The position numbers were made by a program, and so were the translations under genes. Positions 21,376 through 32,373 of a stretch of 64,000 nucleotides of DNA are shown one piece after another; the stretch's first letter is position 1; every line of letters starts with the position of its first letter. Origin of the DNA: Vibrio ezurae NBRC 102218 (GTDB taxonomy: Bacteria > Pseudomonadota > Gammaproteobacteria > Enterobacterales > Vibrionaceae); assembly GCF_000467185.1 (NCBI RefSeq), contig NZ_BATM01000038.1, forward strand, positions 1 through 64,000, given 5' to 3'. Under the pieces are notes generated by a model. The model had not been told where the DNA came from. It worked only from the letters and a program-made list of their open reading frames with translations, and searched no databases.

Positions 21376-21383
21376 CTTGTATA

Positions 21384-21431
21384 TGGTGGCCCCTCGCAGA
21401 CTTGAACTGCGGACCAATCGATTATGAGTCG
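21384..21431 (-). repeat. Distal attachment site: 48-bp copy of the tRNA-Ile2 3' part
   Basis: These 48 bases are identical to 32298-32345, the 3' portion of tRNA-Ile2 from within the anticodon stem to CCA. Identity stops at both ends exactly (A versus T before, T versus A after). This marks the end of the integrated element away from the intact tRNA. It is not a functional tRNA. Confidence 0.95.
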
Positions 21432-21554
21432 TTTTTTTAATGGTTTTTGATGTACAGCAGTGAACAAGAGTGGTAATAATAAATCTTTATATAACAATGC
21501 TTTACTTGTGTATCTTGTTTATTGTTGTTTTTCTGTGTTCATGGTTAATCAAAA

Positions 21555-21580
21555 AAAGTGCTATAAATATGCTATAAATA
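21555..21580 (+). repeat. 26-bp inner direct repeat, integrase end
   Basis: AAAGTGCTATAAATATGCTA plus six more bases is identical to 32221-32246. It is itself a near-tandem of GCTATAAATA. It lies between the attachment site and the integrase gene, as expected of arm-type integrase binding sites. Confidence 0.75.
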
Positions 21581-21605
21581 ACTTTTATGAGATGAGTTTG
21601 ATAGC

Positions 21606-22841
21606 ATGGCGATTAAAAGTAAGATTACAGGAGCGTCACTTCGCAACCTTACATTAGAAGATCGACGTATTAATGATACGGAAGTAAGTGGCTTTCACGC
21701 TATCAAATTTAAGTCAGGAAAAATTGTTTTCTATATTTATTATCGCCTTGGTGGGAAGCAGGTGAATTATAAGATTGGCTTGGGAAGTGAGCTTACTCCT
21801 GCACAAGCGAGAGATCTTGCCAGAGCCAAGTTAGGACAAGTTGCTAAGGGGCAAAATGTTCAGGAAGAAAAGAAACTGGCGCGAGAAGAATCCAAACGTC
21901 GTAAATACCTTAACTTAGAAACCTACCTCGATAAAAAATACCGCCCTTTTCTAGAAGCTCGAAACCCTAAAACAGTCGATAAAATCATAGGGCATCTAAA
22001 GTCGCAATTTAAACATTTCTTGAGCAAAGACTTAGATCGGATAACTGCTTGGGATGTTGAAAAGTGGAAAAGTGAGCGCATAAAACTTGGTCGAGCACCT
22101 GCAACGATAAATTACTCAATTAATACCTTGAAAGGGGCTCTTTCTCGAGCTGTAGAGTGGGATCTGATAGAAGCACACAATCTTACGAAAGTGAAAACAC
22201 TGAAGAATGATAATACGCGCATACGTTATCTTTCAGAGGAAGAAGAAGACAGATTGTTCGAAGCTATATTTAACCGCACCGAACTTATTCGTAATAAAAG
22301 AATTTCCTCAAATAAACATCGAGAAATTAGAGGTGAGCCTTTATATCCGAGTCTGTCTGGTGTTCGCTTTGTTGATTACGTTGAGCCGATTATTTTAACG
22401 GCGATGCATACAGGATTAAGGCGTGGAGAGTTGCTATCACTCACTTGGGATGATGTTTACTTTTCTCACCAATATTTAGTTGTTAAAAGTAGTGAGGCTA
22501 AATCTAAGAAGGCTCGAACTCTTCCTTTGAATACAACGATTATGGACGTGTTAAAAGATTGGCGAAAGCAGCACCCATTCAATCACTATGTTTTTACAGC
22601 AGGGACAGATAAGCCACTAACAGATATTAAAAAGCCATGGTTGAGAATTGTTGAAAAGGCGGGACTTAGTAACTTTAACTTTCATGATTTGCGTCATCAC
22701 TTTGCGAGTAAGTTAGTTATGGCTGGCGTTGATTTAAATACTGTTCGAGAGTTACTAGGGCATGCTGATCTTAATATGACATTACGCTACGCTCATTTGG
22801 CCCCAGAGCACAAAGCTGCGGCTGTCAATCTTATTGGGTAG
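21606..22841 (+). CDS. Tyrosine recombinase (island integrase)
   Basis: This 411-residue site-specific recombinase should insert and excise the element at tRNA-Ile2. It has an N-terminal DNA-arm-binding region (YKIGLGSELTPAQARDLA near residue 58), a SAM-like core-binding domain at about 100-190, and a catalytic domain with Arg in TGLRRGELL near 274, Lys in SKKARTLPL near 301, HDLRH near 361, His in LLGHAD near 383 and the nucleophile in TLRYAHL near 394. All catalytic residues are present. It is transcribed away from the distal attachment site, and the intact tRNA lies at the other end of the element. Confidence 0.95.
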   Translation: MAIKSKITGASLRNLTLEDRRINDTEVSGFHAIKFKSGKIVFYIYYRLGGKQVNYKIGLGSELTPAQARDLARAKLGQVAKGQNVQEEKKLAREESKRRKYLNLETYLDKKYRPFLEARNPKTVDKIIGHLKSQFKHFLSKDLDRITAWDVEKWKSERIKLGRAPATINYSINTLKGALSRAVEWDLIEAHNLTKVKTLKNDNTRIRYLSEEEEDRLFEAIFNRTELIRNKRISSNKHREIRGEPLYPSLSGVRFVDYVEPIILTAMHTGLRRGELLSLTWDDVYFSHQYLVVKSSEAKSKKARTLPLNTTIMDVLKDWRKQHPFNHYVFTAGTDKPLTDIKKPWLRIVEKAGLSNFNFHDLRHHFASKLVMAGVDLNTVRELLGHADLNMTLRYAHLAPEHKAAAVNLIG

Positions 22842-22952
22842 TAAAGCGATTTAGTTTGTAATCATATGACGATTATTGGGTATGTGTCGGTAAGATATTG
22901 ATACTATATGCAATGTCTTAGTTGAACTAATAATTTGGAGGTAAGGGCAAAG

Positions 22953-23423
22953 ATGAAGGGAAGAATCGTTCGATGGGTTGATGATAAAGGGTTTGGTTTT
23001 ATTCAGTCCAGTGAAACGAATGGAGATATTTTTGTCCATATATCGAAGTTTAAATCAGGTTATAGAAGGCCTCAAATAGGTGATGAAGTTGAATTTCAGA
23101 TAGGTAGTAATAAGGGTAAAGTAGCAGCTAAAAAAGCAATACTAATTGGGATTGAGCCACTTAAACCCAATGTTAGCCCACTATCTATTGTGTTTTTAGG
23201 GCTTTCAATCGCATTTGCGGGTTATGCTCTTTGGGCTTATGTAGTGGAGCCACGATTGAACCCTCCATATGAAAATATGGGGTTTAGCTGCCAAGGCAAA
23301 ACACACTGTAGCCAAATGACATCATGCAATGAAGCTAAATTCTATTTAGCCCATTGCCCAAATGTGAAAATTGATGGTGACAATGACGGTATCCCATGTG
23401 AAAGCCAGTTATGTAGTCGCTAA
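22953..23423 (+). CDS. Cold-shock domain, membrane helix and Excalibur domain protein
   Basis: This 156-residue protein joins three parts. An N-terminal cold-shock OB fold (residues 1-65) keeps the RNA-binding motifs KGFGFIQ and IFVHISKF. One membrane segment follows at about 75-95. A C-terminal Excalibur calcium-binding module (about 105-156) has paired cysteines and the ligand loop DGDNDGIPCE. The ATG at 22953 is preceded by GGAGG, which decides the start. Nucleic acid would be bound on the inside and calcium outside. It stands alone behind the integrase; its role in the element is unknown. Confidence 0.82.
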   Translation: MKGRIVRWVDDKGFGFIQSSETNGDIFVHISKFKSGYRRPQIGDEVEFQIGSNKGKVAAKKAILIGIEPLKPNVSPLSIVFLGLSIAFAGYALWAYVVEPRLNPPYENMGFSCQGKTHCSQMTSCNEAKFYLAHCPNVKIDGDNDGIPCESQLCSR

Positions 23424-23678
23424 AATAGTGTTGTTTAGAAGATTGTTTGGATTTATTGGCTAAATTTTGGTTTTTTATAGGCAATAATGACTACTAATTT
23501 GGTAATAAATCTTGGGTATATTCTCTTTCATAGTGAATAGTAGGCAACACAAAGCGATCGGAAGGAATTTTGTGATCCAAAGCCAATTTATTCACAATAG
23601 GGGTTCACAATAAGAGTAAAAAGTTATGTAGGTTAAATATCACTTAGTAAACATTACAAGCAAACGAGTGATAAACCT
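23424..23678. promoter_or_regulatory. Control region upstream of the AlpA-Rep operon
   Basis: These 255 non-coding bases contain direct repeats of TTCACAATA (near 23591 and 23604) and an inverted repeat TATCACT / AGTGATA (about 23637-23673) ending next to the AlpA start. They may bind the AlpA-like regulator or hold the operon promoter. Assignment is by position only. Confidence 0.45.
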
Positions 23679-23912
23679 ATGAACATTGATAAACGAGCTT
23701 TAACAGAGCAAGAAACTTCCGCTTATATTGGCATGAGTCGTTCTTTTCTTCGCCAAGCAAGAATGGAAGGACACCGCAAAAACCGCACCGTCGCACCACC
23801 ATTTATTAAAATTGGGCGTGCCGTCCGTTACCTAAAAGAAGACTTAGATAAGTGGTTGGATAGCCATACCAAGTTAAGCCATCTACCTCAAGATGGAGGT
23901 TTTTATGCCTAA
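23679..23912 (+). CDS. AlpA-like helix-turn-helix regulator / excisionase
   Basis: This 77-residue protein of the MerR/AlpA helix-turn-helix type (TEQETSAYIGMSRSFLRQAR at residues 9-28, then PPFIKIGRAVRYLKEDLDKWL) resembles phage and satellite regulators that activate integrase or act as recombination directionality factors. It begins an operon of three overlapping genes ending in the replication protein, and probably switches excision and replication on. The next gene begins inside its last codons, overlapping by 8 bases. Confidence 0.85.
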   Translation: MNIDKRALTEQETSAYIGMSRSFLRQARMEGHRKNRTVAPPFIKIGRAVRYLKEDLDKWLDSHTKLSHLPQDGGFYA

Positions 23913-24165
23913 TCTAACTAAAGAGCAAAAGACCCTTTTACTATGGATGAGCACAGGACAAACCTTTAAAGTTTGTTCTGATTATTGCCCAGATAAAGGG
24001 GATATTATTCCTGCAAGAAGACTTCCTGTTCGAGTTTTTGCTAAAACAATTGAAAAACTCTATCAGGCAGGCTTCATTAGTTTTGTTCCTGTTGTTTATT
24101 TCGGTCTGCGCTGGGATGAGTTCAGTTTGACTCATAAAGGTAAGGAGGCAATATGGACAACATAG
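23905..24165 (+). CDS. Small hypothetical protein between AlpA and Rep
   Basis: I do not recognise this 86-residue protein. The ATG at 23905 is preceded by GGAGG at 7 bases, favouring it over an upstream ATG at 23893. The chain is basic and mixed helix and strand, with FSLTHKGKEAIW near the end resembling the last strand of a winged helix. It overlaps AlpA by 8 bases and Rep by 13, so the three are translationally coupled. A DNA-binding accessory to replication or excision is a guess. Confidence 0.7.
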   Translation: MPNLTKEQKTLLLWMSTGQTFKVCSDYCPDKGDIIPARRLPVRVFAKTIEKLYQAGFISFVPVVYFGLRWDEFSLTHKGKEAIWTT

Positions 24166-25697
24166 ACCTAACGCTTGTTGAGCGAGATGATAGATCTTTT
24201 GTTCAATCTAGGCTGTCTCGGTTTCCATTGGAGATTCAATCATTACTACTTAAAGAGTATTTTTCTAAACTGAGTAAATTCGAGCGCAATAGCTACTTGC
24301 GTTTAATTACTGATGAGTTAGCCAAGAAATTATCTATTCCTTTAACAAAATTAGAGCTGAGTTTAACTGAAGATGATTTACGCTATAAAGCAAAGCAATA
24401 CGCTGAATCAGTGTTGGCTCTTCGTCGTCAGTATTTAGATGATGTTCAAGCTCTTGATGTGGTGAAAGCATTTATCATTCAGCAGGGAGTTGTTATTAGC
24501 TCTGCTCAATACTCAGTACGTGGCGAGTTAGGTCGGTATAGTGATCATAAGTGGTGGTTAAGAAAACTGAGAAAGACACTAAGACGAAATATTGAAAGCG
24601 TCCTACACCACCTTAATCAGATAAATAAACCCAATAGTTTGTATTGTTCAAGGGCTACCTTGATAGCTAGATTGAACCAAAAAGCCTATCAAAAAGAATA
24701 CCTATCAAACATTATTGCCACTAACGAGCATGGGCAAAGTTTCTCTCTGCTAGAGCTATCTCAAAAGGGTGTGTCAGATCCTAAAATCAGAAAAGGTGAA
24801 TTGATGATGCGTGCCCGAGGCTTTGAAGATATGGCAAAAGAGTTAGATCATGAAGCTGGATTTCTTACCATCACTTGCCCGTCAAAATATCATCGCAGTT
24901 ATTCTAAATCTGGTCATGTTAATCCAAAGTGGGGAGGGTACACCCCTTTAGATGGTCAGCAATATCTTAATAATATTTGGCAACTTATACGTTCTAGGCT
25001 TAGTTGTCTTGGTATTCGTTTTTATGGGTTTAGAGTAGCTGAACCACAACATGATGGAACGCCTCACTGGCACTTGCTTCTGTTCGTAGAAAAGCATCAC
25101 TACGATGAAATGGTGAGTGTTATGCGTGATTATTCTTTGAAAGAAGATGGAGCAGAGCAGGGGGCAGTAGAGCACCGTTTTACCGAAGTGAAGATTGATC
25201 CAAGTAAAGGAACGGCCACAGGTTATATCGCAAAGTACATATCTAAAAATATAGATGGCTCAGATCTAGATTCTGGGCTTTATGGTGAAGATCCTCAAGA
25301 TGCAGCTGCAAGGGTAGATGCTTGGGCATCTTGCTGGGGAATACGCCAATTTCAGCAACTCGGTGGTTGCTCTGTCACTGTATGGCGTGAGCTTAGAAGA
25401 TTGAAAGAGGTATTAGGCTTAGATGATGTCAGAAAGCGTGTGATTGAAGCTGCGGATACAGGTAATTGGAAAGAGTTTACTCAACTAATGGGCGGTGTTT
25501 TTTGTATGCGCAAAAATCAGGTTTTTAAGCCTTACTACGAACTTTCTATAGATAAGGCGACAGGTATTATCAAAACAAGCCAATATTGCTCTGATGAACT
25601 TGTGAGAACACTTAAAGGTGTAATAACTGACGGGCTAGAGCTAATCACTCGCCTTTACCAATGGCGAATTGAATCTCAATTCCGCCATGCTGTTTAA
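24153..25697 (+). CDS. HUH-type replication initiator, phage gpA family
   Basis: This 514-residue protein resembles the gene A replication protein of P2-like phages, which nicks an origin and starts rolling-circle replication. The metal-binding HUH motif is in GTPHWHLLLF near residue 303. The catalytic Y-x3-Y motif is YIAKY near 357-361, with KN following. It is shorter than P2 gpA, mainly at the ends. Such Rep proteins act on their own element, so the island may replicate after excision. It closes the AlpA-small protein-Rep operon. Confidence 0.85.
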   Translation: MDNIDLTLVERDDRSFVQSRLSRFPLEIQSLLLKEYFSKLSKFERNSYLRLITDELAKKLSIPLTKLELSLTEDDLRYKAKQYAESVLALRRQYLDDVQALDVVKAFIIQQGVVISSAQYSVRGELGRYSDHKWWLRKLRKTLRRNIESVLHHLNQINKPNSLYCSRATLIARLNQKAYQKEYLSNIIATNEHGQSFSLLELSQKGVSDPKIRKGELMMRARGFEDMAKELDHEAGFLTITCPSKYHRSYSKSGHVNPKWGGYTPLDGQQYLNNIWQLIRSRLSCLGIRFYGFRVAEPQHDGTPHWHLLLFVEKHHYDEMVSVMRDYSLKEDGAEQGAVEHRFTEVKIDPSKGTATGYIAKYISKNIDGSDLDSGLYGEDPQDAAARVDAWASCWGIRQFQQLGGCSVTVWRELRRLKEVLGLDDVRKRVIEAADTGNWKEFTQLMGGVFCMRKNQVFKPYYELSIDKATGIIKTSQYCSDELVRTLKGVITDGLELITRLYQWRIESQFRHAV

Positions 25698-25867
25698 CTT
25701 GGAGTTCTGTGAATAACTGTATTTTTATCAGTAAAGTAATAAGGAAATACCCCAAAATAGTTTAGGGTAAATACTCATCGTTTATTCAAAAGAGTGAGCT
25801 ATGGCAAATTTTGATTCTAAATGTCAATAGTGTCAGAGGGCATTAAAGTTTTAAACTTTTGTAATTT

Positions 25868-27085
25868 CTATCGCCTAACGATTTCACCCTTGACCTCATC
25901 ATATACATACAGATGTATAGTTTTGTCTCTAATCAAATCGACAGCTTGCTCGATGATATTTAGGGGTACGATAAACCACTCTCTGGCTGTGCGTTCTTTG
26001 CCATCACGATCAATGACTCCAATCTCAAGCCTGACTTTTTCAAGCAGGGCATGAATAGCGCTTTCAGCAGAACGCAGGTCTATTCCCTCTAGTGGAATGA
26101 CTTTCACGCGCTCAGCCTCGGCCATTAAAAATGCTGTATCACGTTTAGCAGCTTTAAAACGCTTTTCAACGTCTTTGGCTAAGCCAATTTTAAAAAGGTT
26201 ATCAAATTGTCGTGTAGCTGCGTTATCTCCAAGTGTTCTTGCAATGTAAACATAACCTGTGCTGCGAGCATTTGAGTAAATCTGCATGCGTGGGTCTGAT
26301 TCATTGTTGGCTTTCACTCGAGCTGCGTTGTAAAAACTGCCATCTGTATTAGCGATACGTTTAGAGTTTTTATCTTCACGTAAGCGGCGCATTAATGAGT
26401 TCAGAATCATCGTTGATTGCGTGCCATTTTCATAAATGATTAATGTTCGCTGGTCTTTACGGCTTACGCCTTGATACTCCTCACTCAGAAAATCAATGAA
26501 TACTAGCGCACCGTTTAATAGGAAAAAGTCACCCTCACTACAGTCGGATGTATCAATACGGTTAGAGTTAATATCCCATTGCAGCTTAGTCCCACGTTTC
26601 AACCCTTCATGTACTTGCTTAAACAACGGTTCAAATACTTCAAAGTTATGGCATGCTGTTGTTTGACCTATTTGAGTGGCTTTCTTACGCTCACGGATAA
26701 CTTCAGGGTGGGTGACATTTTTGAACTCATAGATAGAATTATTAGCTTCATTGCTAGATGAAATAGTCTCAAACAGACGTGAGTTCATGATATCGTCGAT
26801 GGAATCAAACTTTTCCCGCAACAAACCATACTCATCCATTGGAGCTAGTTCATCACAAATGGCATTATCTAGGCGTAACTTTTCAAGTAAAAAGCCCAAC
26901 TTCATTTCAATAACATCAAAGGCATTGCTATCTGGCGCTCTGCCATATTCATTATGAAAATCTAAGATGGTTTGAAACTCATCAGCATGGGTGCTACGCA
27001 CAGCTTTGGTTTTGAACTCTACATCACTTATCCAGTTATATTTATCAGCCTTCTCAATGGCAGCTAGAAAATCTAAATTATCCAT
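25868..27085 (-). CDS. GIY-YIG nuclease (T5orf172-like), third gene of a restriction-like cassette
   Basis: The 405-residue protein has an unassigned N-terminal region of about 260 residues and a C-terminal GIY-YIG nuclease domain of the T5orf172/Mug113 kind: GYVYIARTL near 276, LFKIGLAKDVEKRFKAA with the catalytic arginine, AESAIHALLEKVR with the likely metal-binding glutamate, and AREWF near 381. I chose ATG 27085, which has AAGGCGG upstream and overlaps the helicase stop by 8 bases; a GTG at 27112 is the alternative. I infer that it supplies the DNA cleavage missing from the methyltransferase. Confidence 0.85.
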   Translation of the reverse strand: MDNLDFLAAIEKADKYNWISDVEFKTKAVRSTHADEFQTILDFHNEYGRAPDSNAFDVIEMKLGFLLEKLRLDNAICDELAPMDEYGLLREKFDSIDDIMNSRLFETISSSNEANNSIYEFKNVTHPEVIRERKKATQIGQTTACHNFEVFEPLFKQVHEGLKRGTKLQWDINSNRIDTSDCSEGDFFLLNGALVFIDFLSEEYQGVSRKDQRTLIIYENGTQSTMILNSLMRRLREDKNSKRIANTDGSFYNAARVKANNESDPRMQIYSNARSTGYVYIARTLGDNAATRQFDNLFKIGLAKDVEKRFKAAKRDTAFLMAEAERVKVIPLEGIDLRSAESAIHALLEKVRLEIGVIDRDGKERTAREWFIVPLNIIEQAVDLIRDKTIHLYVYDEVKGEIVRR

Positions 27086-29120
27086 TTTGCGCCGCCTTTT
27101 GCATTTGCTCACGCTTCATTTTTTCAACAAACAAAATCGCCTCTGCCATGCGCTTCTCGATTGGATCAACTGAATCAAACGATGGCTTACGACCATGCTT
27201 TTGCATGAAGGCTTCGATTTTGCGCTCTTGAAAGAGTATCAGCACTTCTTCTTTGGTGATTTGAATCTTATGTGAGTCAATTTCATTCTTAATAGCAAGT
27301 AACACTGGTGTATCAATCGCTTTTGAAAGAACATTAAAGGCATGCTCATAGATATTGTGCTGATCAATCAGGTCAATGCTTAAATTATCTAAATCAAAGC
27401 TCTGGTTTGCCATTTTGATAAATTGGGATTCAGTGCCATCGGCATTTTGACGCGTTTCAATTCGTGAAGGCTTGATAAGAGTTTCAGCAATATAGTGCTG
27501 ACGTACTTCTTCGATCTCTTGTTCTGTTAGTCCTAGGCCTTTGAATTTTTCCTCGATGATTCGAGGTAGGTGTAGTTTATTGGTCACTTCAGGGTCAGAG
27601 CCGCCAGACATAGACTTTTGCACAGCATCATCTTTTAGGACTGCAGCTTGAAGTTCTGTAAAGTCCTCTTGAATGATACGACGCACTTTGTCCGTACTTG
27701 GCTCCATGAAGCCTTTAATCGTCACAGTGCCTGCCTTAGACTTGTTCTTATGCTTCTCTTTTTCTTTTTCGATTTTGTCTTTGTCATTAAATGGGTTATC
27801 GGGCCCATTATCCTTCGAACGCTCGGAGCGAAAATTCAATCTAGGCTCTAAGATCTGTTCCATCAAAAGCGAAGCAGTGATAGCCTTTAGCATGTTATTT
27901 ACCGAATCTTTAATCATGTCATCACCCACCTCTGGGTTAATGATTAGGTTGGTAAATTGCGCATGGGTTTTGTTATGAGAGTCACGCGTACAACGGCCAA
28001 TGATCTGGACTATCTCAGTTAATGAACCACGGTTACCGACGGTAAGTGAATGCTCGCAAAATGACCAGTCAAAGCCCTCTTTTGCCATGCCTAGGGCAAT
28101 GATAAGGTCCATATCATCTATGCCTTTAATATCACGCAAGTAGCCCTGTAGGGCCTCACGCTCTTTGGCGTTATCATTCACCAAATCAGCTACTTTGATA
28201 ATCTTATGGTCACCTTTTCGGCGTACAAACTGTACTCCTGCATCATAGGCTTTAGGGTCTATGCTACGATCATCAATGACATCACCGATTGAGTCGATGA
28301 TATACCCCACCTCATCATACTTGCGTTTGGTGGATTCCATCGAGTTAACATTTGGAATGTGCAGAATGGTTTTTTTATCAGTATCTAGTACATCACTAAT
28401 TTCTTCTAGGTATGAGCCTTGGTAAAAGTGATAACCAATGCCTAAAGATTTAAGATACCGATAGCCATTTAATTGCTCGTAATAGTTATAAGTGACCTTT
28501 TCAAACTTATCTTCATACTTGGGCGGGAGCACTGGTTCTGCATCCCCACGGAAATACGAACCTGTCATCGCTAGGATATGTGCGCTTGAATTATCCATAA
28601 TAGATTGCAGTACTTGACCTAGTATGTTCTCTTCATTGGCGGATACATGGTGAAACTCATCAATGGCAACTAGGCAATTATTGAACTCAGTAGCTAAGAT
28701 GGTTTTAAAGGCGTTACGCAGGGTTGAGTGCGTACAAATCAGTACTTTATCATCTGACCTCATAAAGCGTTTAAATGCCTCAGAGGTAGCACTAGCATCT
28801 ACACAAAGGTTGTTGTGTACATAAACTTCCCAGTTTGCATAGAAGCCATAAGTCATAAGATCTGTATTAGAAAATGAGCCACCAATAGACTTTTCAGGTA
28901 CAGCAATAATAGTCTTTTTGAGGCCTTGATTAAGCATTTTATCTAGTGCGATAAACATCAGGGCACGCGACTTACCTGAGGCGGGCGGTGACTTTAAGAG
29001 TAGATACTTTGCATCACGGTGATCATATGCTCGGGCCTGCATTTCACGCATGCCTAATTCATTGTTATTAACACTGCTTTTGGTTTGGTCGTAGTGTACT
29101 TCCACAAAGTTAACTGTCAT
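27078..29120 (-). CDS. SF2 DEAD/DEAH-type helicase, second gene of the cassette
   Basis: This 680-residue SF2 ATPase has Walker A PPASGKS at 45-51, Walker B DEFH at 154-157, motif III TGS near 189, and motif VI QIIGRCTR near 372, preceded by the motif V-like GMAKEGFDW. The order is that of restriction-type translocases (type I HsdR, type III Res). There is no nuclease motif in its C-terminal 300 residues, which hold a highly charged coiled stretch (about 425-450, KDKIEKEKEKHKNKSK). Start and stop overlap the flanking genes (TAATG upstream, 8 bases downstream). Confidence 0.88.
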   Translation of the reverse strand: MTVNFVEVHYDQTKSSVNNNELGMREMQARAYDHRDAKYLLLKSPPASGKSRALMFIALDKMLNQGLKKTIIAVPEKSIGGSFSNTDLMTYGFYANWEVYVHNNLCVDASATSEAFKRFMRSDDKVLICTHSTLRNAFKTILATEFNNCLVAIDEFHHVSANEENILGQVLQSIMDNSSAHILAMTGSYFRGDAEPVLPPKYEDKFEKVTYNYYEQLNGYRYLKSLGIGYHFYQGSYLEEISDVLDTDKKTILHIPNVNSMESTKRKYDEVGYIIDSIGDVIDDRSIDPKAYDAGVQFVRRKGDHKIIKVADLVNDNAKEREALQGYLRDIKGIDDMDLIIALGMAKEGFDWSFCEHSLTVGNRGSLTEIVQIIGRCTRDSHNKTHAQFTNLIINPEVGDDMIKDSVNNMLKAITASLLMEQILEPRLNFRSERSKDNGPDNPFNDKDKIEKEKEKHKNKSKAGTVTIKGFMEPSTDKVRRIIQEDFTELQAAVLKDDAVQKSMSGGSDPEVTNKLHLPRIIEEKFKGLGLTEQEIEEVRQHYIAETLIKPSRIETRQNADGTESQFIKMANQSFDLDNLSIDLIDQHNIYEHAFNVLSKAIDTPVLLAIKNEIDSHKIQITKEEVLILFQERKIEAFMQKHGRKPSFDSVDPIEKRMAEAILFVEKMKREQMQKAAQNG

Positions 29121-31834
29121 TATTTGCCTGCCTTAGCTTTCATTTCAGTGTACAGTTTAAACAGCACCTCTAGGCGATCTGCATCGGTTTCAAGTGGTTT
29201 GCTGCGACCCGATGCCTTTTGATAGAGCGAGTCCATAAAGGCATCTAGCTCGCTATGAACTTTTAAAAGTGAAGCAGGCATTTTGCTGCGCACGCACAGG
29301 GTCGCTAAAGTATCGCCACTCATTATACGCTCACGGATGATTTGATTAGCAAAGGCCTCTAATTTATCTATGTCGGAGTTAGCTAGGTCTGGCACAGGAA
29401 ATGTGTTGTAACACAGGGTATTTGAGTAGCGATAATCTGTTTTTAAACGCCCACCAACAGTTGCAACCCATAGAGTGTGCATTTTGTTGGAGAGTAATGC
29501 CAAAAGATAACGTGGGGCATCGTATACAACAAAGTTGGAGTCACTCGCGACAGTATCATTGCCTCTAAAATCCATTGGTATATAGTTTCGAGTTTCAGAA
29601 GAAACCCTTGGAATGAATAAACCTGTGCCACGTTTGCTACTGTAACTAGCAAACTCAAACTTGTTTGGTTCCTTTGCAAAGTCACGTGTGGCAGCTTTAG
29701 TGCTATCAAGCCTCATTTTTCTAACTTTGTCTAATCGTGCCTTTATCACTATATTTTTCTCTAACTGTTCCAAGTCAGTCTCATGCAACCAAAGGCACCA
29801 TCTTCTTTTTCCATTAATTAGTTCAGCTGATCCGATATACTCTCTGAGGAATCGTTTAGCAAATGGTTCATTGTTGAATATTTCATTCCTTTCATCATCA
29901 TTTAATATTAGGTTTCCACCGTCTGTGGGCTTATTCCCATACTCGATCATTGGAAAAGAGTTCAAAGCTTTCCACGAACCATCAACAATAATTGATTCAG
30001 AATTTGCCAAATAAGGGCTTATGTTTTTTACAACCGAAACAATATTTTCCGTTATGAGAAGTTTGTCTTCTGAGCTCAAAGTTCGTAGACCCACTATTAC
30101 GCAGATAACAGCTGCCTTATTCTTTGCATTATTTGTCCACTTGAAGGATGTATGAGCAAAACTAATTTCAATGTTATTTTGAAGTATGGATGGCCATAGA
30201 GAACCAGTTTGACTACCTTGGCAAATTGAGTTTGTCGATACCAAAGCAAATTCAGCTGAAGTGTTTCGAATGTATTGTCCAGCAAGGTAGAACCAGCATG
30301 TCACAAAATCTAGTTTTTTATACTTGGGTAACTTTGAAAGGATATGTTTCATATCTTCTTTCTGTTCTTTAGACTGCATTGATGACCCCAGAAACGGCGG
30401 ATTTCCAACAATATAAACCTCACCTTCATTTGGCATCACCGAATTCCAGTCAATACGCAATGCATTTCCTGCATGTAGATTATTGTAGGATTTCAGAGGC
30501 AGTACCGCTTCACTCGACCCAAATTCTTCATTAAATTGTTGGTTCATTTGATGCTCGACAAGCCACAGTGACAACTCAGCAATCTGGCAGCAAAATTCAT
30601 CTAGTTCAATACCATAGAACTGACCAACAGAGATGCCACACTGAGGTGAACCAAAGCCCAACGCCATTTGGTTGCTATTGCCCTCTAGCTCTCTGATGGA
30701 TTTTAAAATTTCCATTTCAAGCAAGCGTAGCTCTCTATAAGCAATGATTAAAAAGTTACCTGAACCACAGGCCATGTCTCCAATTTTAATCTTGCTCAGG
30801 CGGCTACATAGTGCTTTTAGCTCTGTTACTTTACGTGCGGCATTAAAACCAGACTCCAAAACCTTTTGGTGTGCGTCATGCAGTTTCTCTAAAAATAGCG
30901 GGCTGATTACCTTCATAATATTTTCAACAGAGGTATAGTGCATTCCCATGTTTGCACGCTGTTTCACATCAACCACAGCCTGAATCATAGAACCAAAAAT
31001 ATCAGGATTTATCTTTGACCAATCTAGTGCTCCACATTCAATGAGTGCACTGCGAGCTCGCAGGTTAAATTTAGGCACAGGTAGGCTTTCAGCAAACAGA
31101 CCACCATTTACATACGGTAGGCTTTTAATTAGATTTGAGTGATTATCACGCCCAGGTTCATGAGGAGCTAAATCAAGAATGCTAAACACCTCCGCCAATA
31201 TGCTATGCATATCAGAGCCATCTTTTTGCGTAACATCAGCGGTAAGTTGTGTGAACTGATTTTTACCAAAGATACCAGTATCTTCGGCAAAGAAACAAAA
31301 CAGCAAACGCGCCAAAAACACATTCATGGCGTGCAGCTCTTCATCAGTTGATGTGCCGTTATATGCTTTTAAAATATCAAACAGCTTTGCCATCTTCTCG
31401 GCAGCTTTTGCATCAGCAACAGACTCAGAGGCAAGCGAGGCTCGCTCCATTCCAGCTAACGGTAAAAAGAACTCGAATTCTTCATGCAGGTTTTCAAGAG
31501 GCAGTGTAGGCATGGTTTCATTGACTTTAGTATCAAAGGCAATTGCAGTTTCTAGGTTTGTCACCATCAAGATGCGAATACGGTTAGTCTTTAGGCTCTT
31601 TTCATTTTTTAGGCGAACAAGTGCATCAATTGGATCACCGTCAACCACGCGTACCATAGCCCCACCTTTATGGATAACCTCGCGCCCATCTGGCGATGTC
31701 TTTTTGAGTTTTGTCAATGTCGCCTTAGGGATACCAAATGCTTGTACAAAGTCAAACGCATAAGTTTGTGGGGTAATATTTTCAGATAGGGTTTTGAGGT
31801 TATCTTGAACCTCTGTATAAGTAATCTTTGCCAT
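29120..31834 (-). CDS. MmeI-like adenine-N6 DNA methyltransferase, first gene of the cassette
   Basis: The 904-residue protein follows the MmeI (type IIL) order: N-terminal domain, helical spacer with LLFCFFAEDTGIF near 180, methyltransferase with SAM motif DMACGSGNF near 353 and catalytic NPPF near 477, target-recognition domain with YGNKPTDGGN near 642 and YNTFPVPD near 808, and C-terminal helices. NPPF predicts N6-adenine methylation. In MmeI the N-terminal domain cuts DNA using D-x(n)-ExK; here the equivalent stretch (about residues 45-95) has no such motif. It would modify host DNA and give the system its sequence specificity. Confidence 0.9.
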   Translation of the reverse strand: MAKITYTEVQDNLKTLSENITPQTYAFDFVQAFGIPKATLTKLKKTSPDGREVIHKGGAMVRVVDGDPIDALVRLKNEKSLKTNRIRILMVTNLETAIAFDTKVNETMPTLPLENLHEEFEFFLPLAGMERASLASESVADAKAAEKMAKLFDILKAYNGTSTDEELHAMNVFLARLLFCFFAEDTGIFGKNQFTQLTADVTQKDGSDMHSILAEVFSILDLAPHEPGRDNHSNLIKSLPYVNGGLFAESLPVPKFNLRARSALIECGALDWSKINPDIFGSMIQAVVDVKQRANMGMHYTSVENIMKVISPLFLEKLHDAHQKVLESGFNAARKVTELKALCSRLSKIKIGDMACGSGNFLIIAYRELRLLEMEILKSIRELEGNSNQMALGFGSPQCGISVGQFYGIELDEFCCQIAELSLWLVEHQMNQQFNEEFGSSEAVLPLKSYNNLHAGNALRIDWNSVMPNEGEVYIVGNPPFLGSSMQSKEQKEDMKHILSKLPKYKKLDFVTCWFYLAGQYIRNTSAEFALVSTNSICQGSQTGSLWPSILQNNIEISFAHTSFKWTNNAKNKAAVICVIVGLRTLSSEDKLLITENIVSVVKNISPYLANSESIIVDGSWKALNSFPMIEYGNKPTDGGNLILNDDERNEIFNNEPFAKRFLREYIGSAELINGKRRWCLWLHETDLEQLEKNIVIKARLDKVRKMRLDSTKAATRDFAKEPNKFEFASYSSKRGTGLFIPRVSSETRNYIPMDFRGNDTVASDSNFVVYDAPRYLLALLSNKMHTLWVATVGGRLKTDYRYSNTLCYNTFPVPDLANSDIDKLEAFANQIIRERIMSGDTLATLCVRSKMPASLLKVHSELDAFMDSLYQKASGRSKPLETDADRLEVLFKLYTEMKAKAGK

Positions 31835-32220
31835 TTGATAAGTACTGCATGTTATGTCAAATTTTCATCATATTATCATCTATGAAAGTTCATTTCACAG
31901 CCCGATGATTTCTATCTCCTAATAAGTTGGTGACTTTGCCAGCCCAGTCCAAAATTAATTCTGTGGTAATTATTCTTTAACTGATTTTTATCCAAAAATG
32001 AGTCGCAATGCGCTTAAAAGTAATTTTACCGTTCTCTGAATAAATGACGTTTCTTTTCTTAGGGAGTAGCAGGTAGTTCACTCTCACTCAGAGCAAGGTT
32101 GTGCACCCTACACAGAAAGCTCTTAGCTTCACCTTGATGAGTTCTGAACCTTATGCTTGTTTAGTTCTGGGTAGGGATAAGTTGCTGAGGAGCGTTATCG
32201 TAATGGTTTGCTACAAAATG
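31835..32220. other. Non-coding stretch upstream of the restriction-like cassette
   Basis: I find no convincing reading frame longer than a few dozen codons in these 386 bases. They must hold the promoter of the minus-strand cassette. No regulator gene of the C-protein kind is present here. Confidence 0.4.
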
Positions 32221-32246
32221 AAAGTGCTATAAATATGCTATAAATA
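32221..32246 (+). repeat. 26-bp inner direct repeat, tRNA end
   Basis: It is identical and in the same orientation to 21555-21580, about 50 bases inside the attachment site at the intact tRNA. It is a probable arm-type integrase binding site. Confidence 0.75.
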
Positions 32247-32255
32247 GCAGAAATG

Positions 32256-32294
32256 AAAAAAGCCTGAGAAACGAATTGCTTCTCAGGCCTTTAA
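32256..32294 (-). terminator. Element-borne terminator for tRNA-Ile2
   Basis: On the minus strand, AAAGGCCTGAGAAG / TTCTCAGGC followed by six T residues lies directly beyond the tRNA CCA. The insertion took the tRNA's own terminator away (now at 21339-21375) and this one replaces it. Confidence 0.85.
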
Positions 32295-32297
32295 ATT

Positions 32298-32373
32298 TGG
32301 TGGCCCCTCGCAGACTTGAACTGCGGACCAATCGATTATGAGTCGACTGCTCTAACCACTGAGCTAAGGGGCC
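32298..32373 (-). tRNA. tRNA-Ile2 (anticodon CAT, lysidine type), integration target
   Basis: This is a 76-nt cloverleaf with encoded CCA. The 5' half, GGCCCCTTAGCTCAGTGGTT, equals the E. coli ileX/ileY tRNA from memory. The anticodon is CAT, so pipelines often call it Met, but the body is that of tRNA-Ile2, whose C34 is changed to lysidine by TilS to read AUA. The 3' part (32298-32345) is the attachment site and was restored by the element on integration. Confidence 0.93.

What the first reader, a model, noticed from the sequence alone, without database searches (positions are those of the whole stretch)
25868..31834. Three-gene methyltransferase-helicase-GIY-YIG cassette: candidate split restriction system
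Three overlapping minus-strand genes (1-base and 8-base overlaps) encode an MmeI-like N6-adenine methyltransferase with its own target-recognition domain, an SF2 helicase with restriction-translocase motifs, and a GIY-YIG nuclease. The parts equal modification/recognition, motor and blade. It lacks HsdS, PglZ, BrxC, a phospholipase D nuclease and DUF1998, so it is not canonical type I, BREX or DISARM. Similar gene trios may exist in databases, but I know of no characterised mechanism.
Basis: partly seen in the sequence, partly recalled or inferred. Interest (0 to 1): 0.87.

Follow-up and report, generated by a model that had tools for sequence, protein, structure and literature searches.

The report
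DnmA-YeeB-YeeC type split restriction operon
Three neighbouring genes for a DNA-marking enzyme, a DNA motor and a DNA cutter probably form a known but poorly understood bacterial immune operon, carried here on a small mobile element.

Summary
In detail: an MmeI-like adenine methyltransferase (MTase), an SF2 helicase and a T5orf172/GIY-YIG protein form one minus-strand operon at 25868-31834, all open, motifs intact. The trio is not new: it is the dnmA(yeeA)-yeeB-yeeC arrangement published for Bacillus subtilis (inactive in phage tests there; reported protective in Vibrio crassostreae). Evidence added here: (1) GIY-YIG lies directly behind the helicase in 82 of 84 loci, the other two ending at a contig edge; (2) the MmeI nuclease motif is in 0 of 76 trio MTases but in 17 of 18 MTases without the helicase; (3) motor, nuclease and MTase core co-vary (r 0.82-0.87), but the target-recognition domain (TRD) much less (r about 0.4), so cleavage specificity most likely comes from the MTase; (4) the MTase-motor gap takes the same Schlafen/RhuM genes as some Type I operons; (5) the trio is cargo of an AlpA/gpA element in tRNA-Met whose relatives, three at the same site, often carry other defence genes. 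Best reading: an ATP-dependent, Type I-like restriction system split over three proteins. Cleavage is undemonstrated.

The parts
29120..31834 (-). MmeI-like N6-adenine DNA methyltransferase with its own TRD; N-terminal nuclease site lost
   Evidence: five MmeI domains; PADLOC REase_MTase_IIG 946.7 bits; MmeI 5hr4, 9.4e-174; no D..ExK
27078..29120 (-). SF2 helicase/translocase (YeeB-like); Walker A PPASGKSRAL, DEFHH box, TGSYFRGD, QIIGRCTRD motifs
   Evidence: model and fold search
25868..27112 (-). T5orf172/GIY-YIG protein, presumed nuclease (YeeC-like); helical N-terminal part, small barrel-like middle, GIY-YIG region about 284-413; possible ATG start at 27085
   Evidence: (invariant G286 Y289 K308 G310 R318 E350 H354)
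32295..32345 (.). attachment repeat overlapping the tRNA-Met gene (tRNA 32298-32373, minus strand)
21381..21431 (.). second attachment repeat, 50 of 51 bases identical; with 32295-32345 it bounds a 10.9-kb element
21606..22841 (+). tyrosine integrase of the carrying element
   Evidence: Phage_integrase 1.8e-33
23679..23912 (+). small helix-turn-helix protein (77 aa), AlpA-like by eye
   Evidence: HTH_17 9.3e-07; the name AlpA is recalled
23893..24165 (+). small protein that precedes gpA in related elements; only a sub-threshold winged-helix match
   Evidence: (HTH_45 0.071)
24153..25697 (+). phage gpA-type rolling-circle replication initiator
   Evidence: Phage_GPA 1.5e-79; phrog_91 1.6e-150

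Best explanation
[quoted passage not shown] The MTase binds a non-palindromic site through its TRD and methylates one adenine, which marks the host (methylation shown for B. subtilis DnmA in the literature; inferred here). On an unmethylated site the MTase acts as the recognition subunit and loads the SF2 translocase (inferred). The translocase moves along the DNA, and the GIY-YIG protein, not the lost N-terminal nuclease of the MTase, makes the cut, probably when two complexes meet or stall (inferred; a two-site rule would protect freshly replicated DNA). It travels as defence cargo of an integrase-AlpA-gpA element in tRNA-Met.
For: Fixed unit: GIY-YIG within 130 nt downstream of the helicase in 82 of 84 loci, the other two ending 0 and 37 nt after it; an MTase on the same strand in 75 of 84, the other nine having at most 2,406 nt upstream before the contig ends. 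Overlapping frames between helicase and GIY-YIG in 61 of 71 full trios, with starts taken mechanically as the first start codon. Blade moved: D..ExK in 17 of 18 full-length MTases without the helicase, in 0 of 76 trio MTases. Cleavage specificity from the MTase: distance correlations MTase core-helicase 0.87, MTase core-GIY 0.82, helicase-GIY 0.87, but TRD-helicase 0.44 and TRD-GIY 0.41; the about equally variable N domain gives 0.89 and 0.83. Conserved motifs: GIY and helicase motif residues invariant or nearly so in 77 and 91 homologues, all present in the window. Type I-like hitchhikers: Schlafen, RhuM or Fic-like genes in the MTase-helicase gap of 24 of 87 trio loci and in 6 of 20 HsdM loci, but in 0 of 23 MmeI loci without helicase. 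Defence slot: 7 of 10 cargo proteins scanned from related gpA elements match PADLOC models. Published methylation, synteny and a V. crassostreae phenotype (passages).
Against: In B. subtilis the trio gave no protection against three phages and no block to plasmid transformation, its motif is not avoided in phage genomes (O/E 0.97), and its authors call it a relic. No cleavage, translocation or complex is described in the passages I read. The V. crassostreae phenotype was seen only as a statement in another paper. The TRD is the least conserved domain, so saturation may lower its correlation, although the N domain control argues against that as the whole cause; its correlation still exceeds all 500 shuffles, and some MTase windows outside the TRD are also only 0.49-0.58. 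Distances among related rows are not independent, and 6 of the 14 closest helicase pairs come from the same four loci. The 84 loci are the best-scoring ones, not a random sample. The Type I comparison rests on 20 loci from one class. The fold searches give only a generic SF2 match and no significant GIY-YIG match.
Confidence: 0.72

Rival explanations
1. Orphan methyltransferase with a silent restriction relic, as concluded for B. subtilis: methylation regulates genes and the helicase and nuclease no longer act.
For: B. subtilis dnmA, yeeB, yeeC deletions had no phage phenotype, dnmA deletion no transformation phenotype, and the motif is not under-represented in phage genomes.
Against: In the window all three frames and the conserved motifs are intact. 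The authors note that B. subtilis YeeB and YeeC lack stretches present in the V. crassostreae proteins. The trio sits on an element whose relatives carry defence genes. Motor and nuclease co-vary tightly with the MTase core.
Confidence: 0.13
2. Type II-like set: the GIY-YIG protein recognises and cuts the same site on its own, the MTase only protects, and the helicase is accessory.
For: GIY-YIG enzymes can be Type II nucleases (recalled: Eco29kI, Hpy188I).
Against: An independent nuclease would have to change with the TRD. Instead GIY-YIG tracks the helicase and MTase core much more than the TRD; most of the closest helicase pairs have very different TRDs. Deleting dnmA caused no growth defect in B. 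subtilis.
Confidence: 0.06
3. Methylation-guided block without cleavage (BREX-like), or a response that kills or stalls the infected cell rather than cutting phage DNA.
For: No cleavage was described in the passages read; toxin-like genes sit in the operon of many relatives.
Against: The GIY-YIG motif residues are invariant in 77 homologues. The extra genes are absent from many loci, including the window.
Confidence: 0.09

Closest known systems
DnmA-YeeB-YeeC of Bacillus subtilis (PMC7261158, PMC9973331; passages read)
   Same: Same three protein kinds in the same order; MmeI-like MTase lacking the REase motif; helicase then T5orf172/GIY-YIG downstream
   Different: On a tRNA-Met element here; published B. 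subtilis YeeB and YeeC lack C-terminal stretches and showed no restriction. No direct alignment to the B. subtilis proteins was made here
DnmA-YeeB-YeeC homologues of Vibrio crassostreae (Piel et al. 2021 preprint, seen only as cited in PMC9973331)
   Same: Same trio; deletions of dnmA and yeeB reported to raise sensitivity to some phages
   Different: Sequence and paper not seen; relation not measured
MmeI, Type IIL/IIG enzymes
   Same: MTase, spacer, TRD and C-terminal domains
   Different: Nuclease motif lost; motor and nuclease supplied by separate genes
Type I restriction systems (HsdRMS)
   Same: Inferred use of the modification enzyme as recognition part; SF2 motor, EcoR124I HsdR among the fold matches; same Schlafen/RhuM hitchhiker genes
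   Different: No HsdS; TRD fused to the MTase; nuclease is a separate GIY-YIG protein, not part of the motor
Type ISP enzymes (LlaGI, LlaBIII; recalled)
   Same: MTase plus TRD plus SF2 motor plus nuclease, non-palindromic site, one strand modified
   Different: Single polypeptide with an Mrr-like nuclease there; three proteins and GIY-YIG here
DISARM
   Same: DrmMI is a weaker relative of the MTase (6.6e-37)
   Different: No DUF1998 protein and no PLD nuclease among the island proteins scanned

Membership tests
DnmA-YeeB-YeeC | MmeI-like MTase without nuclease motif, then SF2 helicase, then T5orf172/GIY-YIG, one strand | tested here: met
   definition from passages
DnmA-YeeB-YeeC | Sequence homology to the B. 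subtilis proteins | not tested
   No named B. subtilis sequence was aligned; B. subtilis is the only one of 14 named controls with an MmeI_Mtase match
DnmA-YeeB-YeeC | Site-specific m6A in the host | not testable with these tools
   Needs a long-read methylome
Type IIL/IIG (MmeI) | D..ExK nuclease site in the N-terminal domain | tested here: not met
   0 of 76 trio MTases, window included, against 17 of 18 full-length MTases without helicase
Type I | Separate HsdS subunit and nuclease fused to the motor | tested here: not met
   TRD is inside the MTase; the helicase has no Pfam nuclease domain; the GIY-YIG domain is in a third protein
Type I | ATP-dependent translocation before cleavage | not testable with these tools
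   Only SF2 motifs and fold were seen
Type ISP | Single polypeptide with nuclease, motor, MTase and TRD (definition recalled) | tested here: not met
   Three ORFs
DISARM | DUF1998 (DrmB) and PLD nuclease (DrmC) with the MTase (definition recalled) | tested here: not met
   No such Pfam match among the seven island proteins scanned
BREX | PglZ and BrxC with PglX (definition recalled) | tested here: not met
   No such match among the island proteins scanned (seven with Pfam; five with PADLOC); PglX models only weakly (27.4 bits, cut-off 500)

The most novel reading that the evidence does not exclude
A very widespread, unnamed architecture of translocating restriction: an MmeI-type enzyme that gave up its own nuclease, serves as swappable recognition module, and drives a shared motor plus GIY-YIG cutter in trans. 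Evolution changes target by exchanging only the TRD, and the MTase-motor junction serves as a socket for back-up toxins, as in Type I operons.
Probability: 0.5. Interest if true: 0.62.

Novelty: new member of a known kind. Interest (0 to 1): 0.42.

Why it matters
Relatives of the helicase turn up in many bacterial phyla and one archaeal MAG (record titles of the 80 loci kept) and on 262 plasmid records, 152 of them over at least 80% of the query. Yet PADLOC's 2023 library has no close model for the window's helicase or for the 77 nuclease homologues, and scores the MTase as a Type IIG enzyme (946.7 bits). If the reading is right, some annotated 'Type IIG enzymes' are in fact recognition subunits of a three-part system. 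TRD exchange then offers a direct test of who decides where the cut falls.

Tried and rejected
Considered and rejected as memberships: Type IIG, Type I, Type ISP, DISARM, BREX (see Membership tests). PADLOC PbeA (1e-09) for the helicase and PDC-S57 (3.2e-05) for the nuclease look like generic domain matches. PF01541 finds two other places of the genome, not this one. In phage records the helicase has only two partial matches (23% of the query). Fold searches: no PDB match at E 0.001 or better for the GIY-YIG model; VIA Z at most 5.6 for its middle part, which looks like a small SH3/Tudor-like barrel, too weak to use. Sequence searches of the PDB: nothing for the nuclease profile at E 0.1, only two DHX58 chains at about 0.0008 for the helicase. 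The helicase model matches many SF2 enzymes about equally (RIG-I, FANCM, MDA5 at Z about 22; EcoR124I HsdR among Foldseek's first ranks), so this says 'SF2 motor' only. Promoter-like sites are no more frequent than in shuffles. Paper searches for the trio or its parts added no paper on the trio beyond the two found; the search for RhuM in Type I loci gave nothing useful. Morgan 2009 was not held; Piel 2021 is a bioRxiv preprint, and no preprints are held.

Correction of a count: one search printed the MTase as 'adjacent upstream' in 44 loci and 'downstream only' in 2. The script misfiled the window as downstream because of its one-base overlap, so the true numbers are 45 and 1 (L031); the total of 75 is unchanged.
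Full report
Observation. The MTase has all five MmeI domains, the helicase ResIII and DEAD, the third protein T5orf172 and MUG113. One base is shared between MTase and helicase; the 8-base overlap of helicase and GIY-YIG assumes the ATG at 27085.

Setting. The trio lies in a 10.9-kb element bounded by two 51-base repeats (50 of 51 identical) at 21381-21431 and 32295-32345, the latter overlapping a tRNA-Met gene. From left to right the element holds an integrase, a cold-shock/Excalibur protein, a small AlpA-like HTH protein, another small protein, a gpA-type replication initiator, then the trio on the other strand. G+C is 39.6% in the element against 42.9% and 44.3% on either side.

It is known. 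B. subtilis dnmA(yeeA)-yeeB-yeeC has the same three kinds of gene in the same order (passages read; not the whole papers). DnmA makes m6A at GACGAG and lacks the MmeI nuclease motif. Those papers credit Morgan 2009 (not held) with noticing the neighbours and with the suggestion of a Type I-like system. Deletions had no phage phenotype in B. subtilis with three phages, dnmA deletion did not change transformation, and the motif is not avoided in phage genomes. Deletions of dnmA and yeeB homologues in V. crassostreae are said to raise phage sensitivity (a preprint cited there, not seen). I found no other paper on the trio.

Synteny. Among close genomes, 4 of 61 (own included) have the helicase, and each of the three others has the full trio in the same order. 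With those, the three relatives and the window, 82 of 84 loci have the GIY-YIG gene within 130 nt downstream and the other two end 0 and 37 nt after the helicase; 75 of 84 have the MTase on the same strand, and the nine without have at most 2,406 nt upstream (with the correction given under Tried and rejected). The sample is best-first, so it favours loci like ours. On plasmids 262 records match the helicase; the two that I opened (H1, H25) have the GIY-YIG gene behind it, H25 with a full MTase gene in front and H1 with only a fragment.

From the MTase side. PF20473 matches 45 of 370 genomes of the class. I fetched 35 of the 59 non-own rows, leaving out 24 weaker rows or second pieces. Of the 35, 12 have helicase and GIY-YIG behind the MTase and 23 have neither in the stretch fetched; four of these 23 (L109, L127, L128, L129) end within 0-652 nt downstream of the MTase, so they cannot be judged. 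Of the 23, 18 have an MTase frame of at least 850 aa; 17 of these 18 have the aligned D..ExK, and the exception is L109, one of the truncated ones. Trio MTases have it in 0 of 76 (in the E column one row has E, and it lacks K); a looser regular expression hits 1 of 76, L019. So loss of the built-in nuclease goes with gain of the motor-nuclease pair; the papers say that Morgan 2009 noted this for a set of MmeI homologues.

Who sets the cleavage site. Across 71 full trios, pairwise distances of MTase core (window residues 17-600), helicase and GIY-YIG agree (0.82-0.87), but the TRD agrees poorly (0.44 with helicase, 0.41 with GIY-YIG, 0.39 with the MTase core); 0 of 500 shuffles reach any of these values. 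The N domain, about as variable as the TRD (mean identity 0.417 and 0.399), still gives 0.89 and 0.83; 60-residue windows at 641-740 of the TRD fall to 0.12-0.16, while windows before 601 lie between 0.49 and 0.85. Of the 14 closest helicase pairs, 12 have TRDs at least 46% different; six of the 14 pairs come from the same four loci. TRDs are thus exchanged or diverge while motor and nuclease stay. If the nuclease had its own site, such exchange would leave host sites unprotected. I infer that the MTase tells motor and nuclease where to act. This inference is mine and rests on comparative data only.

Active sites. In 77 GIY-YIG homologues G286, Y289, K308, G310, R318, E350, H354, E378 and W379 are invariant; in 91 helicases the Walker A (S48 nearly), DEFHH, TGS.FRGD and GR.TRD residues are invariant. 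The window has them all. Their catalytic roles are recalled from the families. Models: GIY-YIG mean pLDDT 83.5 but pTM 0.46; helicase 81.7 and 0.70; fold searches as told under Tried and rejected.

Extra genes. Between MTase and helicase 38 of 87 loci have more than 130 nt; at least three of these gaps (L009, L077, L108) are affected by split frames. I scanned 43 of the 54 gap ORFs listed, dropping 11 on the opposite strand: Pfam finds HATPase_c_4 in 10, SLFN_AlbA_2 in 9, RhuM in 7, Fic in 5. Profiles built from 22 of these proteins hit 24 of the 38 gaps, largely by construction. The same profiles hit 6 of 20 fetched HsdM loci (20 of 42 rows): in L153, L158, L159, L160 and L168 just before or overlapping the start of the large DEAH motor gene, in L162 next to the presumed HsdM gene. 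They hit 0 of 23 MmeI loci without helicase and 0 of 17 gpA loci. The window has no insert.

Defence slot. gpA relatives at 64-72% identity were examined in 16 loci of the genus (17 regions asked; L092, a 3.1-kb contig, was left out of the cargo view). The small protein upstream of gpA was found in all 16 (in L147 at some distance, with transposase-like ORFs between); integrase hits in all 16 but partial or distant in L136-L139 and L142; none has the trio helicase in the stretch fetched. Of ten large cargo proteins chosen by eye from ten of these loci, seven match PADLOC at E 0.001 or better: a helicase next to a DUF2290 protein (L133; DUF2290 4.9e-14), PD-Lambda-4_A (L135), BovA (L140), PD-Lambda-2_B (L143), PDC-M60A (L147), PDC-M26A (L148), PDC-M58A weakly (L145); three (L136, L137, L141) do not. 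Six of the 16 loci were not scanned, and element ends were found only for L133, L143 and L145, which sit in the same tRNA-Met site with both repeats and enclose the scanned cargo. So the trio occupies a position where relatives often keep other defence genes. Elements of this general class (integrase, AlpA, defence cargo) are described in PMC12595487 and PMC10803314 (passages read); one search was made for the gpA type and was not followed further.

Verdict. A known kind of operon, complete and probably active, whose mechanism is still open. The TRD result and the shared hitchhiker genes favour a Type I-like mechanism with the MTase as recognition subunit; cleavage, translocation and complex formation remain inferred.

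Noticed in passing
21381-32345: 10.9-kb integrase-AlpA-gpA element in tRNA-Met; at the same site in relatives (L133, L143, L145) similar elements carry other PADLOC-matching genes (a helicase with a DUF2290 partner, PD-Lambda-2_B, PDC-M58A weakly).
   Followed up: partly
21555-21601 and 32221-32267: A second pair of 47-base repeats (79% identical, AT-rich, CTATAAATA units) just inside the attachment repeats; perhaps integrase arm sites.
   Followed up: no
22935-23423: Cold-shock domain fused to an Excalibur domain inside the element; several related elements have a different-looking protein of roughly 300-380 aa near this place (no Pfam match for the two scanned).
   Followed up: no
L005:3818-5986: An AAA_13 protein (3.8e-109) lies divergently next to the trio of G009; this class includes PrrC-like anticodon nucleases (recalled), which can accompany Type I systems.
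   Followed up: no
L161 and L165 (G000:C60, G000:C63): The window's own genome also carries two HsdM-type loci with a large DEAH motor gene behind them.
   Followed up: no
L149:4770-6001: On Providencia rettgeri plasmid p06-1619-1 an IS5 transposase gene lies just before a 198-nt MmeI-annotated fragment, followed by the annotated helicase and GIY-YIG genes.
   Followed up: no
L007:1996-2769: A separate 257-aa protein that looks GIY-YIG-like by eye (not scanned) lies just before the MTase of the trio in G038.
   Followed up: no
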